Below are positions 20,262 through 33,826 of a stretch of 40,428 nucleotides of DNA, in pieces. Under the pieces are notes generated by a model. It was not told the DNA's origin. It did not search any database and saw only the letters and a program-made list of their open reading frames with translations. The position numbers and the translations under genes were made by a program. The stretch spans positions 1 through 40,428 of the forward strand of contig JADCGK010000013.1 of NCBI GenBank assembly GCA_020249045.1, given 5' to 3'. Each line of letters starts with the position of its first letter. Position 1 is the stretch's first letter. The stretch is from Azospirillum sp. (GTDB lineage: Bacteria; Pseudomonadota; Alphaproteobacteria; CACIAM-22H2).

Positions 20262-20372
20262 CGTCGGACGACTCGGGGGCGAAAAACGCGGAGGACGGGG
20301 CGACTCGGGGCCGCGGCGGACAAGGTCACGCAGTTTACCCCCCGCCCCCTTCCGCCGGAACCTTCCTGCGCC

Positions 20373-20378
20373 TATATT
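20373..20378 (+). promoter_or_regulatory. Candidate -10 box of the ssrA gene
   Basis: TATATT stands out in otherwise very GC-rich sequence, immediately upstream of the acceptor piece of tmRNA. The -35 region (TTCCGC, 17 bp upstream) is weak. Confidence 0.45.
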
Positions 20379-20379
20379 G

Positions 20380-20660
20380 GGGGTGCCGGGAAACCGGCTA
20401 TGGCGATAAACGGCTCGCGTAATAGCCGATGCGGACCCGGGGGCAGTGCCCGGCGCCTCCACCATCCACGGGGGCGAACCAGGATCGACGCGCGGGTAAA
20501 GGCCTGTCTTTCGCTCGGCATGGTTCCGCCGTCATCGGGCCATTCTAGAGATGCCAACGACAACGTGGCTCTCGCTTCGGAAGCGCGTCTGGCCGCCTAA
20601 CGGCGTCCAAACGTAGGACCTAAGCGCGGCTCGGGGGGCGCCGGGCAACAGAAGCCCCCC
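20380..20660 (+). ncRNA. ssrA: Circularly permuted two-piece tmRNA (alpha type)
   Basis: tmRNA rescues stalled ribosomes and tags the nascent chain. The order is permuted. The acceptor piece comes first (about 20380-20464) with a GCCGG-GAAA-CCGGC hairpin (20385-20398), a T-arm stem (20437-20441 with 20449-20453) and the acceptor strand CGCCTCC followed by ACCA (20454-20464). Five bases (TCCAC) separate it from the coding piece, which begins GGGGGCG at 20470-20476. The two strands pair over 7 bp and include a G3-U70 wobble, the alanine identity element. The coding piece continues with AACCAGGATCGACG, close to the usual tmRNA 5' region, then the tag frame and a final GGGC-AACAGAA-GCCC hairpin (20643-20657). 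The T-loop GGCAGTG departs from the common TTCAA. Outer ends are approximate. Confidence 0.93.
20553..20600 (+). other. ssrA: tmRNA tag-peptide reading frame
   Basis: GCC at 20553 is the resume codon. The frame encodes ANDNVALASEARLAA followed by TAA at 20598-20600. With the alanine carried by tmRNA the tag would be A plus this peptide. ANDN is the segment recognised by alpha-type SspB and the terminal LAA is the ClpX recognition end (family knowledge). Confidence 0.92.
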
Positions 20661-20721
20661 ACTTCGCGATTTCCCGCCGCCGGGGAATGACGCTACACTT
20701 CGCGCAAAGACGGGGGACGTC

Positions 20722-21234
20722 GTGTCCGAGAACGCCGACAAGCTGCATTACGACCGGATGATGGAAAACGCGCTGCGCGGCGTGGTGCGCGAGGCGTTGG
20801 AGACGGTCGTGGCGACCGGCCTGCCGGGCGAGCATCATTTTTACGTCACGTTTCGAACCGAATACCCGGGCGTGGAGATGCCCGAGCGGCTGCGCCAGCG
20901 CCACCCCGAGGAGATGACGATCGTCCTGCAGCACCAATTCTGGGATTTGAAGGTCGAGGCCGAGCGCTTCGGCGTCACCTTGTCCTTCGATCGGGTGCAC
21001 GAACGGCTGAACATCCCCTTCGCCGCGATCACGGCGTTCGTCGATCCGTCGGTCCAATTCGGCCTGCAATTCCCGACCGGACAAGTCCCCGCGGCGAAGG
21101 CCCCCGTGGCGGCTGCCGCCAAGGTCGAGCCGAAGCCCGCCGCCAAGGCCGATGCGCCCGCGGAAGAACCCGCGCCGCCCGGCGACGGATCGGGCCGCGT
21201 CGTCGCACTCGACGCTTTCCGCAAGAAAAACTGA
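20722..21234 (+). CDS. sspB: SspB-like ClpXP specificity adaptor (alpha type)
   Basis: A 170-residue protein resembling alphaproteobacterial SspB, which binds the ssrA tag and ClpX and speeds degradation of tagged proteins. The core (residues 1-115, with [43 protein letters not shown]) is well conserved. A flexible Ala/Lys/Pro linker follows, ending in [13 protein letters not shown], which corresponds to the C-terminal ClpX-binding tail. The start is GTG with GGGGGA upstream. The gene begins about 60 bp after tmRNA, placing the tag template and the tag receptor side by side. Confidence 0.9.
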
Positions 21235-21325
21235 CCCCGCCCGACGACGCTTTCGAAGGCGTGGCCCGCGCGCGCGCGCGCGGCTAAGATCGGCCTCGTC
21301 GACCTTTGTGACGGGAGCCGTAGGA

Positions 21326-22942
21326 ATGCCGGGTTTCGAGTATCGCGAAATGGTGGAAGTCGCGCACGACGACGTGCCGATGCGCAAACTCGCCGACGGT
21401 CCCGTCGCGAAGGCCAAATTCGACGGCCGGGACGTGCTGAAGGTCGATCCGGCCGCGCTGACGCTGCTCGCCAAACATGCCTTCATGGATATCGCGCATC
21501 TGCTGCGCCCCACCCACCTCGCGCAGTTGCGCGCGATCCTGGACGACGCCGAAGCCTCGCCCAACGACAAGTTCGTCGCCGCCGACCTGCTGAAGAACGC
21601 CAACATCGCCGCCGGCGGCGTGCTGCCGATGTGCCAAGACACCGGCAACGCCATCGTCATGGGCAAAAAGGGCCAGAACGTCTGGACCGGCGGCGACGAC
21701 GCTGCAGCGCTGGCCGAGGGCGTTTGGCAAAGCTACGCCGAACGCAATCTGCGCTATTCGATGGTGGCGCCGCTCAAGATGTTCGAGGAGACGAACACGG
21801 GCGACAATCTGCCTGCGCAGATCGACCTCTACGCGACGTCGGGCGACGAATACGAATTCCTGTTCGTCGCCAAAGGCGGCGGCTCGGCGAACAAGACCTT
21901 CCTGTTCCAAGAGACGCCTTCGCGCCTGACCGAGAAAGGCATGCTCGAATTCCTCGACGCGAAGATCAAAACCCTCGGCACGGCGGCTTGTCCGCCCTAT
22001 CACCTCGGGATCGTGATCGGCGGCACGTCGGCCGAACAGAACCTCAAGACGCTCAAGCTTGCGACCTGCCACTATCTGGATGGGCTGCCTGACCAGGGCA
22101 ACAAGCACGGCCAAGCCTTCCGCGACCGCGAGATGGAGGCGAAGGTCCACAAACTCACGCAGATGAACGGCATCGGCGCGCAATTCGGCGGCAAGTATTT
22201 CTGCCACGACGTGCGCATCGTGCGCCTGCCCCGGCACGGCGCCTCTCTGCCGATCTCGATCGGCGTGTCCTGCTCGGCCGACCGCCAGGCGCTCGGCAAG
22301 ATCACGGCCGAGGGCGTGTTCCTCGAAGCGTTGGAGACCGACCCGGCCAAGTATTTGCCGGCAGTGGACGTCTCGAAGCTCGCGGGCGATCCGGTGAAGA
22401 TCGATCTGAACCGGCCGATGAAGGAAATTCGCGAGATCCTGTCGCGGCTGGCCATCACCACGCGCGTGATGCTGACGGGCACCATCGTCGTGGCGCGCGA
22501 TCTCGCGCACGCCAAATTGCGCGCCGAACTCGAGAAGGGCAATCCGCTGCCCGATTATTTCAAGAACCACGTGATCTATTACGCGGGCCCCGCCAAGACG
22601 CCGAAGGGCTACGCTTCCGGGTCGTTCGGGCCGACGACCGCGGGCCGGATGGACAGCTTCGTCGATCAGTTCCAGGCGGCGGGCGGCAGCTATGTCATGC
22701 TCGCCAAGGGCAACCGATCGAAGGCCGTGACCGAAGCCTGCAAAAAGCACGGCGGCTTCTATCTGTGCTCGATCGGCGGGGAAGGCGCCTTGCTGGCCGA
22801 ACAGTGCATCAAGAAGGTCGAATGCATCGCCTATCCCGAACTCGGGATGGAGGCGATCTGGAAAATCGAGGTCGTGGATTTTCCCGCGTTCCTGGTCGTC
22901 GACGACAAGGGGAACGACTTCTTCGCCAAATGGACGGGATGA
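21326..22942 (+). CDS. fumA: Fumarate hydratase class I (Fe-S type)
   Basis: A 538-residue oxygen-sensitive enzyme interconverting fumarate and malate in the TCA cycle. Candidate 4Fe-4S ligands are Cys103 (PMCQDTGNA), Cys222 ([14 protein letters not shown]) and Cys316 (GVSCSADRQ), matching the spacing in Escherichia coli FumA. The C-terminal domain has [57 protein letters not shown] at 21326 has AGGA close upstream and GGGAG further off. The stop overlaps the next ATG (ATGA). A class II fumarase is encoded 9.5 kb away. Confidence 0.95.
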
Positions 22943-23461: not shown

Positions 23462-23968
23462 TCAAGCCGTCGAGAAACGCGTATAGGCCATCACCATATC
23501 GACGGTTCGCCCGTCGCCGGCGAGGGGCAGGAACAAGCTGACCCGCGCGATCAAATGGCCACCCATCAGCAAGGCACCGCGATTATCCGCGCCGACGACA
23601 AGACGGTCGCGGAATTGCGGGCGGCCGGTTTCCGCCGCCGCGCGGTAATTGCCCACGACGCGCGCGCGCATGCCAGGAACGCCGCGCCCCATATGGGCCT
23701 CGTCGACCGCCTGGCCGGTGGGATCGTAGCCGCGGGCGGCGACATGGCGCGTGCCAGCGAGGCGATAGCGGAAGAACGGGGGTTCGGGCAGCACGTCGAC
23801 CAGAACAATGTCCGGCAGCAGTTCGCGCAGATCGCCCGGTTCGAGGTCGGCGCGCGCGGGCAGCTTGCGCGCACCCCGCTTTTCGCGCCAATAGTCGTAA
23901 ACGCGCACGCATTCCGGATCCAAAACCGATGGATCGGACAATCCGTCGATGTCCGCGACCAATTGCAT
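23462..23968 (-). CDS. PAS_5-type domain protein (2)
   Basis: A 168-residue protein of the same family and length as its convergent neighbour: RVYDYWREKRGARKLPARADLEPGDLRELLPDIVLVDVL, PFFRYRLAGTRHVAARGYDPTGQAVDE and VSLFLPLAGDGRTVDMVMAY. It keeps the LAGTRHV/DPTG/LPLAGDG-VDM framework of PAS_5 proteins. The two are only moderately similar, so a recent duplication is unlikely. The stop codons are 16 bp apart. Function unknown. It diverges from queC across 71 bp. Confidence 0.75.
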   Translation of the reverse strand: MQLVADIDGLSDPSVLDPECVRVYDYWREKRGARKLPARADLEPGDLRELLPDIVLVDVLPEPPFFRYRLAGTRHVAARGYDPTGQAVDEAHMGRGVPGMRARVVGNYRAAAETGRPQFRDRLVVGADNRGALLMGGHLIARVSLFLPLAGDGRTVDMVMAYTRFSTA

Positions 23969-31153: not shown

Positions 31154-31645
31154 TCACTTGAACTTGTTCGAAGCCTCGCGCAACGCCTTGAGCAACTCGG
31201 ATTCGACTTTTCCGCCGAGGCCCGTGATGCGTTGGGCGAGCACGACGTAAAGCGCGTCCACGTGATGGGCGAAGATCACGCCGTGCCAGACGTTCGGCTC
31301 TTTGATCGGCGCGGCGTAGTCGTGGAGCGACTTGGCGATCTGCGTCAGCAGCGGAAACTTGAACGTGCCGCCGAGTCCCTTGATTTCCAGCGCGTCGGCC
31401 GCGACGCGTTCGATCAGCGCCATGTGCGGCGCGCCGCCGTCGGCGAGCCCGGCTAGCGCCGCGCGCAGCGTCTTCAGCTTGGCGGCGATCTGTTTGGCGA
31501 AGTTGTCGGAGGACTTCTCGACGACCGCTTCGAGTTGCGAGGCCTCAGCGGGCGTGAGGATGACGCCGAAGCCCGTCTTGAAATTGACCGCGCGTTTGCG
31601 CAGATCCATCGGCGGCTGGATGATCTGGACTTTGGGCGGCGCCAC
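31154..31645 (-). CDS. HPt-like protein lacking the phospho-acceptor histidine
   Basis: A 163-residue, probably all-helical cytoplasmic protein. Residues 78-110 (LIERVAADALEIKGLGGTFKFPLLTQIAKSLHDY) match the core helix hairpin of HPt domains, whose signature is H-x-L-K-G followed by GTFGFP-like residues. Here the His position is Leu86 (LEIKG), so it cannot act as a normal phosphotransfer protein. It lies 17 bp downstream of a receiver-domain gene that also lacks its canonical phospho-acceptor. The two probably interact (inference). Assignment to HPt rests on motif resemblance only. Confidence 0.65.
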   Translation of the reverse strand: MAPPKVQIIQPPMDLRKRAVNFKTGFGVILTPAEASQLEAVVEKSSDNFAKQIAAKLKTLRAALAGLADGGAPHMALIERVAADALEIKGLGGTFKFPLLTQIAKSLHDYAAPIKEPNVWHGVIFAHHVDALYVVLAQRITGLGGKVESELLKALREASNKFK

Positions 31646-31662
31646 GGCGGGGACTCCGGCGG

Positions 31663-32172
31663 TCAGCTCGGACGGGCGTTGGGATCGACACCCCGACGCT
31701 CGTTGCCGTTGAAGGGCATTTGCTTGCGCCGCCTGTCGGGCCCGAAATAGCCCGGCGCCGAAACGAAGGGCCGGGGATAGGCGATCACCATCGACAAGCG
31801 CTTGTAGAGCGAATCGACCGTGTAGGGCTTGGCCACGAACTCGTTCACCCCGTGATCGCGGGCCTCGACGACGTATTGCTCCTCCGACCGCGCGGTCAGC
31901 AAAATCACCGGCAGCAGACGGTTGCGCGAACTCGGGTCATTGCGGATGTAATCGACGAGCGCGATCCCGCCTTCGGCGGGCAGATCGTGCTCGGTGATCA
32001 CGATGTCGATATTGCCCTCTTTGAGGACGTTCATCGCCTTCTCGAAGTCGTTGACCTTGCGGATATAAGTGGCGCCGAGCATCGACAGGATGTCGTTCAG
32101 CATCGTCAACGACAATGCGTTCGGATCGCAGATCAAAAACCGGACTTTCGAGAAATCGATCTTCTCGGGCAT
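31663..32172 (-). CDS. Receiver-domain protein with Glu at the phospho-acceptor site
   Basis: A 169-residue single-domain response regulator. The N-terminal acidic pair is reduced to ICDPN (Asp16). The phospho-acceptor position, four residues before the conserved Pro, is Glu61 (VITEHDLPAEGG) instead of Asp. The switch Thr93 (LLTARSEE) and Lys115 (FVAKPYT) are kept. After residue 135 a basic tail contains GYFGPDRRR and then GNERRG. No DNA-binding domain is present. Glu may mimic a constantly phosphorylated state. MPEKIDFSKVRF was chosen as the start; the frame is open 30 codons further up. The HPt-like gene follows after 17 bp. Confidence 0.82.
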   Translation of the reverse strand: MPEKIDFSKVRFLICDPNALSLTMLNDILSMLGATYIRKVNDFEKAMNVLKEGNIDIVITEHDLPAEGGIALVDYIRNDPSSRNRLLPVILLTARSEEQYVVEARDHGVNEFVAKPYTVDSLYKRLSMVIAYPRPFVSAPGYFGPDRRRKQMPFNGNERRGVDPNARPS

Positions 32173-32404
32173 ACGCTGCTTCTGCGGCGGAAAGGAAATC
32201 TTCTTTCCTGTCTTACGGGGTGCGGCTTGGCCTGACAAGCCCCCACCCGGCGCCCACGCCACATCGGGAATATTGTTGCCACCCCATTACCCGCCGGAAT
32301 TTGGGTATTGAATCTAGGGTCTTTCGCATGCCTAAATCTAAGGTGCGTCTGGAGTTTCGGGCGCCGGTCCGGGGGGACCTGATATGGGGGGACCGCGCAA
32401 CGTC

Positions 32405-33826
32405 ATGGCGGAACGGGCCGCGACGCGTTTGGAGCGCGACAGCTTCGGACCGATCGAAGTCGCCGCCGACCGATATTGGGGCGCGCAGACCCAGCGCAGC
32501 GTGGAGCTGTTCCGGATCGGCGACGAGCGTATGCCCGAACCCCTGATCCGGGCTTTCGGCGTCCAGAAAAAGGCCGCCGCCCTGGCCAACCTCGCTTTGG
32601 GCGAATTGCCGTCCGAACTCGGCCAACCGATCCTGCGCGCGTGCGACGAAGTCGTGGCGGGCACGCTCGCCGACCATTTCCCGCTGGTGATTTGGCAAAC
32701 GGGCTCGGGCACCCAGACGAACATGAACGTCAACGAGGTGGTGGCCAACCGGGCGAACGAACTGCTGGGCCAGCCGCTGGGCCAGCGCAAGCCCGTGCAC
32801 CCGAACGACCACGTCAATCGCGGCCAGTCGTCGAACGATTCCTTCCCGACGGCCATGCACATCGCCGTGGTGGCGGAGATCCACGATCTGCTGCTGCCGG
32901 CCCTCCAGCGCCTGCACGAAGTCCTGCAGGCCAAGGCGACCGAGGCCGCCGGCACGGTCAAGATCGGCCGCACGCATCTGCAGGATGCGGTGCCGATGAC
33001 GCTGGGCCAGGAGATCGGCGCGTGGGCGCGCCAGGTCGAGCTGGGACTCGCGCGCGTCGAACAGACTTTGCCCCGGCTTTATCGGGTCGCCCAAGGCGGC
33101 ACGGCCGTGGGCACCGGGCTCAACGCGCACAAGCAATTCCCCGCGCGCTTCGCCCAGGAATTGGCCCGGCTGACCAACCTGCCCTTCATGCCCGCCGAGG
33201 ATAAGTTCGAGGCGATCGCCGCGCACGACGCGATGGTCGAGTGTTCGGGCGCGCTCAACACGCTGGCGGCGAGCCTGTTCAAGATCGCCAACGACGTGCG
33301 CCTGCTCGCTTCGGGCCCGCGTTCCGGCCTGGGGGAAATCTCCCTGCCCGAGAACGAGCCCGGCTCCTCGATCATGCCCGGCAAGATCAATCCCACCCAG
33401 GCCGAGGCGCTGACGATGGTCTGCGCGCAAGTCATGGGCAATCATGTCGCCGTCACCTTCGCCGGCGCCAGCGGACATCTGCAGCTCAACGTCTTCAAGC
33501 CGGTGATCGCGCACAACGTGTTGCGGTCGATCCGGCTTCTCGGCGACGCCGCCGCGTCCTTCGCCGAGAATTGCGTGGCCGGTATCGCCCCCAATCCGGC
33601 CGCGATCGCGCGGCACGTCGAAAGATCGCTGATGCTCGCGACGGCGTTGAACCCGCATATCGGGTACGATGCGGCCGCGCGCATCGCCAAACACGCGCAC
33701 GCCCACGACCTGACGCTCAAGGAAGCCGCCGTCGGTCTTGGTTTGGTAACGGAAGCGGATTTCGACCGTTGGGTCCAGCCCATCGATATGCTGGCACCGA
33801 GGGAAAAACGTCAAACAGGGGAGTGA
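32405..33826 (+). CDS. fumC: Fumarate hydratase class II
   Basis: A 473-residue oxygen-stable fumarase. [23 protein letters not shown] is the N-terminal signature, followed by [22 protein letters not shown] and [22 protein letters not shown]. The catalytic loop [11 protein letters not shown] is at residues 320-330. An ATG 21 bp upstream (32384) with GGGGGG at 8 bp spacing is an equally possible start; the shorter form fits the family N-terminus better. It is the second fumarase of the window. An RHH gene starts 4 bp after its stop. Confidence 0.95.

What the first reader, a model, noticed from the sequence alone, without database searches (positions are those of the whole stretch)
31154..32172. 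A two-gene decayed phosphorelay: receiver domain with Asp-to-Glu and HPt-like protein with His-to-Leu
The receiver protein has Glu61 at the phospho-acceptor position while keeping Thr93 and Lys115. Its operon partner has an HPt-like core but Leu86 where the His should be. Both phospho-sites are lost in one operon, so the pair may work by constant docking instead of phosphotransfer. The residue calls are seen in the sequence; the HPt assignment and the proposed mechanism are inference. No sensor kinase is nearby. Of everything in the window, this is the best candidate for an undescribed signalling module.
Basis: partly seen in the sequence, partly recalled or inferred. Interest (0 to 1): 0.62.

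Follow-up and report, generated by a model that had tools for sequence, protein, structure and literature searches.

The report
c-di-GMP-type receiver with dead phosphotransfer partner
Two neighbouring genes of an uncultured alphaproteobacterium make a signalling protein of a class known to listen to the messenger c-di-GMP, and a helper that looks like a phosphate-passing domain but has lost its phosphate site; relatives in several bacterial groups keep both losses, so the pair probably signals by binding rather than by phosphate transfer.

Summary
The receiver (31663-32172, -) has Glu61 at the acceptor and Pro17 at the second Mg site; its operon partner (31154-31645, -) has Leu86 where the phospho-His belongs. 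Both changes are old and kept. In 44 deduplicated relatives the acceptor is always Glu and the partner site is Leu, Phe, Tyr or Ile, never His. They form one clade (support 1.0), while most of the wider alphaproteobacterial family keeps Asp and His. The window's own genome has such an intact second pair.

The partner is a CheA-P1-like HPt (PDB profile E 3e-8; best fold matches CheA P1) and probably belongs to the HmrX family of Caulobacter. [quoted passage not shown] the tail's best PDB match is CleD. The two genes are fused in 21 relatives. In a joint model the partner's conserved N-terminal arm, disordered alone, becomes ordered. I conclude: a Cle-type receiver bound to a non-phosphorylatable HPt-fold partner, gated by c-di-GMP (inferred). 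The receiver class is known; I found no paper on the pairing or the shared double loss. New variant of a known kind.

The parts
31663..32172 (-). CheY-like receiver protein (169 aa) with C-terminal Cle-type arginine-rich region
   Evidence: Pfam Response_reg 4e-18; CheY chains in PDB; tail best matches CleD peptide 6sft
32122..32124 (-). Pro17, where the second acidic Mg-binding residue stands in intact relatives
   Evidence: alignment: D in 101 of 102 D/H pairs, non-D in 43 of 44 E-clade pairs
31990..31992 (-). Glu61 at the phospho-acceptor position
   Evidence: Glu in 44 of 44 clade members
31858..31860 (-). Arg105, taken as the alpha4 Arg that Cle proteins need
   Evidence: Arg in 44 of 44 clade members; role of the alpha4 Arg in CleA/CleD from PMC5677366; the residue correspondence is by motif, not by alignment to CleD
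31729..31749 (-). ARR motif copy 1, YFGPDRR (residues 142-148), fits [YF]XGP[DE][RK]R
31693..31713 (-). ARR motif copy 2, FNGNERR (residues 154-160); one position (Asn for Pro) departs from the published motif
31154..31645 (-). CheA-P1-like HPt-fold partner (163 aa, GTG start)
   Evidence: AF2 model pLDDT 79.1, pTM 0.74; CheA P1 Z 13.8; profile hits to CheA P1
31388..31390 (-). Leu86 at the phospho-His position of the HPt
   Evidence: Leu 26, Tyr 8, Phe 7, Ile 3 of 44 clade members, His 0
31580..31630 (-). conserved N-terminal arm of the partner (residues 6-22, VQIIQPPMDLRKRAVNF), proposed docking element
   Evidence: pLDDT about 43 alone and about 90 for residues 11-30 in the joint model of L002; low entropy in the clade

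Best explanation
The two genes encode a Cle-type, CheY-like receiver that can no longer be phosphorylated and a CheA-P1-like HPt-fold protein that can no longer carry phosphate. SHOWN by sequence and model: both losses, their single origin and long conservation, the c-di-GMP-type arginine-rich tail, the P1 fold of the partner, purifying selection, and fusion of the same two domains in other species. INFERRED: the pair forms a standing complex through the partner's N-terminal arm and the receiver face that once exchanged phosphate; c-di-GMP binding to the arginine-rich tail changes that complex; the output, as for CleA, CleD and HmrX in Caulobacter, is on the flagellar motor or the choice between swimming and attachment. 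Glu61 with the kept Thr93 and Lys115 would hold the receiver in a fixed, possibly active-like state, so that c-di-GMP and not phosphate is the switch.
For: Tail: PDB search finds CleD peptide 6sft first (E 0.0059); motif and biology from PMC5677366 passages and section 11. Loss: 44 of 44 clade members have Glu with a non-His partner site, one clade with support 1.0 although the site columns were left out. Convergence: three Caulobacterales receivers with CleD-like tails (L268, L270, L276) also carry Glu and DP/NP but fall outside the clade. Partner fold. Association: 21 fused genes of 185 pairs; adjacent in 59 of 80 receiver-centred loci and 83 of 109 partner-centred loci. Docking arm. Selection: dN/dS 0.12-0.23 receiver and 0.18-0.40 partner against five genus orthologs. 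Setting: GGDEF in 11 of 11 and FliM in 10 of 11 genus genomes.
Against: No c-di-GMP binding, protein binding or phenotype was measured. The second tail motif of the window protein reads GNERR, not GP[DE]RR. The 6sft match is weak in E-value because the peptide is short. The joint model was made from a read-through of two genes, so the domains are tethered; no PAE or coordinates were available; one of five models scored only 67.6. In 10 of 10 Caulobacterales genomes the partner stands without an adjacent Cle-type receiver, so the two families can act apart. 11 pairs with Asn at the acceptor keep His, so loss in one partner does not always bring loss in the other. The double loss is one ancestral event, not repeated ones.
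Confidence: 0.6

Rival explanations
1. Decoy or antagonist: the dead pair, a paralog of the intact pair B of the same genome, competes for its kinase or receiver and damps that phosphorelay, as the plant pseudo-HPt AHP6 is thought to do (recalled).
For: Nine of the ten other genus genomes show a second match besides pair A, and an intact D/H pair was read for the window genome and for eight genus genomes; in a ninth (L034) only the His-bearing partner lay in the stretch fetched. The HPt fold is kept.
Against: The intact paralog is only distantly similar to pair A (about 29% for the partner); the tail and alpha4 Arg of a c-di-GMP effector are invariant in the clade, which a pure decoy would not need.
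Confidence: 0.2
2. Phosphomimic adaptor without ligand control: Glu61 locks the receiver on, the partner only holds it at a place in the cell, and the tail is a structural relic.
For: Glu 44 of 44, Thr or Ser 44 of 44 and Lys 44 of 44; Glu as phosphomimic is discussed in PMC12632262 (passages).
Against: The tail is as strictly conserved as the receiver core. In CleD, E70A stays functional while the tail is needed (PMC5677366 section 11).
Confidence: 0.13
3. Decaying genes on the way out.
For: Catalytic residues are lost in both.
Against: dN/dS 0.12-0.40; open frames in all 11 genus genomes; one clade spanning several named genera keeps both genes.
Confidence: 0.02

Closest known systems
[quoted passage not shown]
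   Same: Single receiver plus C-terminal tandem [YF]XGP[DE][RK]R region; conserved alpha4 Arg; CleD also has Glu at the acceptor; control by c-di-GMP, not phosphate (for Cle, from the paper)
   Different: Encoded with, and in relatives fused to, an HPt-fold partner; separate clade from the CleD-like receivers of Caulobacterales; c-di-GMP binding not tested here
HmrX (CC_1220), putative HPt of Caulobacter (PMC11481889)
   Same: P1-like fold, same nearest folds; the Caulobacter relative L245 has its site His at residue 81, as HmrX H81
   Different: HmrX has the His and, from its Caulobacterales relatives, stands without an adjacent receiver; its sequence was not compared directly; the window partner has Leu and an adjacent receiver
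CheA P1 domain and P1-CheY complexes (1i5n, 2lp4, 3kyi)
   Same: HPt fold, Z 13.8 over 119 residues; same H-x-x-K-G-x-x-G-T context
   Different: Stand-alone, with an extra N-terminal arm, no His
Plant pseudo-response regulators and pseudo-HPt (AHP6)
   Same: Asp-to-Glu receivers (PMC12632262 passage) and HPt proteins without His (recalled)
   Different: Different kingdom, no c-di-GMP tail, not one operon (recalled)

Membership tests
[quoted passage not shown]
   Pfam 4e-18, CheY chains first in PDB
[quoted passage not shown]
   Copy 1 exact; copy 2 with Asn for Pro; flanking Arg134 present; best PDB hit CleD 6sft
[quoted passage not shown]
   Arg105 in 44 of 44; correspondence to CleD R113 by motif only
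[quoted passage not shown]
   Needs a binding assay
[quoted passage not shown]
   FliM is present in the genome; no interaction test
Phosphorylatable receiver | Acceptor Asp and two acidic Mg residues | tested here: not met
   Glu61, Asp16-Pro17
HPt / CheA P1 fold | Four-helix bundle related to CheA P1 | tested here: met
   Pfam Hpt hit in relatives
HPt phosphotransferase | Phospho-accepting His | tested here: not met
   Leu86; no other His column is invariant in the clade (best 37 of 44)
HmrX family | Homology to HmrX | tested here: inconclusive
   HmrX sequence not held; fit by site position 81, by Ala at His+71 in one of four Caulobacterales relatives (L243; Thr, Gly, Arg in the others), and by nearest folds

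The most novel reading that the evidence does not exclude
Alphaproteobacteria own a widespread two-part module, a Cle-type c-di-GMP receiver with an HmrX-type P1 partner, often as neighbours and sometimes fused. In one old clade, which includes the window, the module has dropped phosphate chemistry in both parts and become a c-di-GMP-gated protein-binding switch. By the same token the unknown partner of HmrX in Caulobacter would be a Cle protein.
Probability: 0.45. Interest if true: 0.72.

Novelty: new variant of a known kind. Interest (0 to 1): 0.55.

Why it matters
How receivers without a phosphorylation site are switched is described as largely a mystery (PMC12632262, abstract in the listing and passages). 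Here nature has removed both phospho-sites of a cognate pair and kept the pair, which separates docking from phosphotransfer. The intact sister pair in the same genome is the natural control. The pairing also predicts an interaction between two Caulobacter regulators of motility and attachment, Cle and HmrX, that the papers I saw treat apart.

Tried and rejected
Neighbourhood: beyond the two genes I saw no neighbour shared between pair-A loci of all families, so context gives no function. The idea that losses come in couples throughout the family was dropped: 11 Asn-receivers keep His partners and 18 Asp-receivers have non-His partners; only the Glu clade shows the double loss throughout. A substitute phospho-His was looked for; no His column is invariant. 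Orthology to CleD was tested and not found: CleD-like receivers fall outside the clade (CleD itself was not in hand, its relatives were picked by their tail). A Foldseek search with the joint model returned only single receiver chains among the 50 rows shown, so it does not test docking. Plasmid records gave one distant hit, Niveispirillum. Pseudo-HPt papers listed are nearly all on plants (listing only). That the pairing is unpublished rests on searches of open-licence PMC papers only; PMC5677366 holds no word beginning 'HPt' in its main text. Viral contigs were not searched.

Sampling limits: loci were fetched mostly as best matches to profiles that include pair A, so the Glu clade is over-represented and the counts are not frequencies. 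Of the match rows listed, the 29 loci it gave and 80 further stretches were read; the rest were not. In the tree, 177 pairs were kept after identical rows were merged and two low-coverage rows (L126, L224) dropped. My two HMMs were built from 26 and 27 aligned sequences.

Full report
What is there. On the minus strand at 32172-31663 lies a 169-aa CheY-like receiver and, 17 bases on, at 31645-31154, a 163-aa partner. The gene upstream is divergent fumC (32384-33823) and the next one downstream is a saccharopine-dehydrogenase-like protein (homospermidine synthase by eye, no call). None of the 39 other window ORFs scanned against Pfam is a kinase or receiver. The receiver hits Response_reg at 4e-18; the partner alone hits no HPt family.

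The residues. Intact relatives read DD or ED, D, T/S, K and mostly H-[DE]-x-[KR]-G. Among 102 deduplicated D/H pairs the second acidic residue is Asp in 101; in the Glu clade it is Asp in 1 of 44 (L145).

The partner is an HPt of the CheA P1 kind. The family profile A1 finds CheA P1 chains (2ld6 3.4e-8, 1tqg 8.4e-8, 1i5n 6.8e-6; the top row, BRIC1 6ff6, is a repeat protein with the same motif). Of eight family members given to Pfam, seven hit Hpt at E up to 0.1, three of them above the curated cut-off (best 1.6e-8); the eighth, a fusion (L021), hit only Response_reg. The AF2 model (19 rows, pLDDT 79.1, pTM 0.74) is closest to CheA P1: Foldseek rank 1 is 1i5n, E 0.02, probability 1.00, with no hit below 0.001; VIA-align Z 13.8, rmsd 3.1, 119 aligned, tied with BRIC1 at 13.9. 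Other HPt proteins score about 8-9, and designed helical bundles reach 9-11, so fold alone would not decide; with the profile hits it does.

How old and how general. The partner gene is found in 33 of 61 relatives' genomes and, by profile, in 154 of 385 genomes of the class. In pairs with an adjacent tail-bearing receiver (185 of 209 receivers in hand), after merging identical rows and dropping two, the acceptor/site table is D/His 102, E/Leu 26, E/Tyr 8, E/Phe 7, E/Ile 3, E/His 0, N/His 11, D/other 18, A/His 1, G/Asp 1. All 44 Glu pairs form one clade with support 1.0 in the joint tree without the site columns, and 0.999 in a receiver-only tree of 221 rows. Named members include Thalassobaculum, Thalassospira, Ferrovibrio, Nisaea and strain BAL199. 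So the simplest reading is one double loss that was kept; the ex-His position drifts among hydrophobic residues while Glu does not move. In a general survey, phospho-sites are missing from 0.9% of Hpt and 2.0% of receiver domains (PMC12632262, passages). The window genome also holds an intact pair (L031).

The tail explains the receiver. PMC5677366 (passages and section 11) describes Cle proteins: CheY-like proteins with a C-terminal arginine-rich region of tandem [YF]XGP[DE][RK]R that binds c-di-GMP; CleA and CleD need it and an alpha4 Arg, but not the acceptor, and CleD has Glu70 there. The window tail YFGPDRRRKQMPFNGNERR fits, with one departure in copy 2, and its best match in the PDB is the CleD peptide 6sft, E 0.0059. 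In the Glu clade the residues GP, RRR, the later G and RR, and the alpha4 Arg are each 44 of 44. Three CleD-like receivers of Caulobacterales (L268, L270, L276) carry Glu with DP or NP but lie outside the clade: an apparently independent path to the same state.

The partner and HmrX. HmrX (CC_1220) is a putative HPt whose deletion lowers spreading and raises holdfast; its nearest folds are CheA P1 8C5V, 2LD6, 1I5N, and its site is H81 (PMC11481889, section 11 and passages). All 10 Caulobacterales genomes examined hold a His-bearing partner homolog, with no Cle-type receiver in the stretch fetched. In L245 its site His is residue 81; in L243 an Ala lies 71 residues on, as HmrX A152 would, but other relatives have Thr, Gly or Arg there. 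In the two loci read out (L243, L245) it follows a gene that looks like NAD kinase, which in turn follows a DUF2336-like gene (DUF2336 tested for L245), and Bradyrhizobium (L090) has NAD kinase, receiver, partner, DUF2336 (NAD kinase named by eye). Membership in one family with HmrX is therefore likely but not shown.

Do they bind? In 21 of 185 pairs receiver and partner are one protein. The partner's N-terminal arm (about KVQIIxPxxDLKRRAVN) is among its most conserved parts in the clade (mean entropy 1.28 bits over alignment columns 8-27, against 2.35 for columns 46-84 and 1.19 around the site), yet has pLDDT near 43 alone. In a joint model of the L002 pair (82% partner and 89% receiver identity to the window; 14 rows) pLDDT is 85.9, pTM 0.82, and the arm rises to about 90 with a new strand at about partner residues 7-9. 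This fits docking that does not use the phospho-sites. The alignments differ between the two models and the tether could help, so it is support, not proof.

Selection. Nei-Gojobori dN/dS against five genus orthologs is 0.12-0.23 (receiver) and 0.18-0.40 (partner): functional genes.

Mechanism. Most likely the pair is a standing complex read out through c-di-GMP. Shown: losses, conservation, tail, fold, fusions. Inferred: ligand binding, complex, output. GGDEF proteins (11 of 11) and FliM (10 of 11) in the genus make it feasible. Rivals: an antagonist of the intact pair, or a ligand-free phosphomimic adaptor.

Novelty. The receiver class is known, and the partner family probably is. In the searches named under Tried and rejected I found no paper on the pairing or the joint loss. 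New variant of a known kind.

Noticed in passing
L031 (G000:C81), receiver in ORF 456-1652, partner 1657-2151: Second, intact pair (Asp and His kept) in the same genome; present across most of the genus.
   Followed up: partly
L015, L019, L150, L152, L154, L159, L206, L215, L218, L226, L233: A different group of tail-bearing receivers has Asn at the acceptor while the partner keeps His (11 of 11; they sit in a 12-tip group of the tree, support 0.99).
   Followed up: partly
L161-L165 (genomes G224, G315, G392): Several extra partner copies without His and without an adjacent receiver; some lie beside similar genes. 7 to 9 partner matches per genome.
   Followed up: partly
L017, L018, L020, L021, L022, L049, L050, L175, L176 and others: Receiver and HPt-like partner fused in one gene (21 pairs); not one clean group on the tree.
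   Followed up: partly
L268, L270, L276: CleD-like Caulobacterales receivers with Glu acceptor and DP/NP, outside the window's clade.
   Followed up: yes
L090, L243, L245: The partner gene lies by a probable NAD kinase gene and a DUF2336 gene in both Bradyrhizobium and Caulobacter.
   Followed up: partly
window 21152-22939 and 32384-33823: Class I and class II fumarases both within the window.
   Followed up: no
window 20372-20691: Permuted-type tmRNA gene reported by ARAGORN.
   Followed up: no
window 23465-23968: Single PAS_5 domain protein, possibly another small signalling protein.
   Followed up: no
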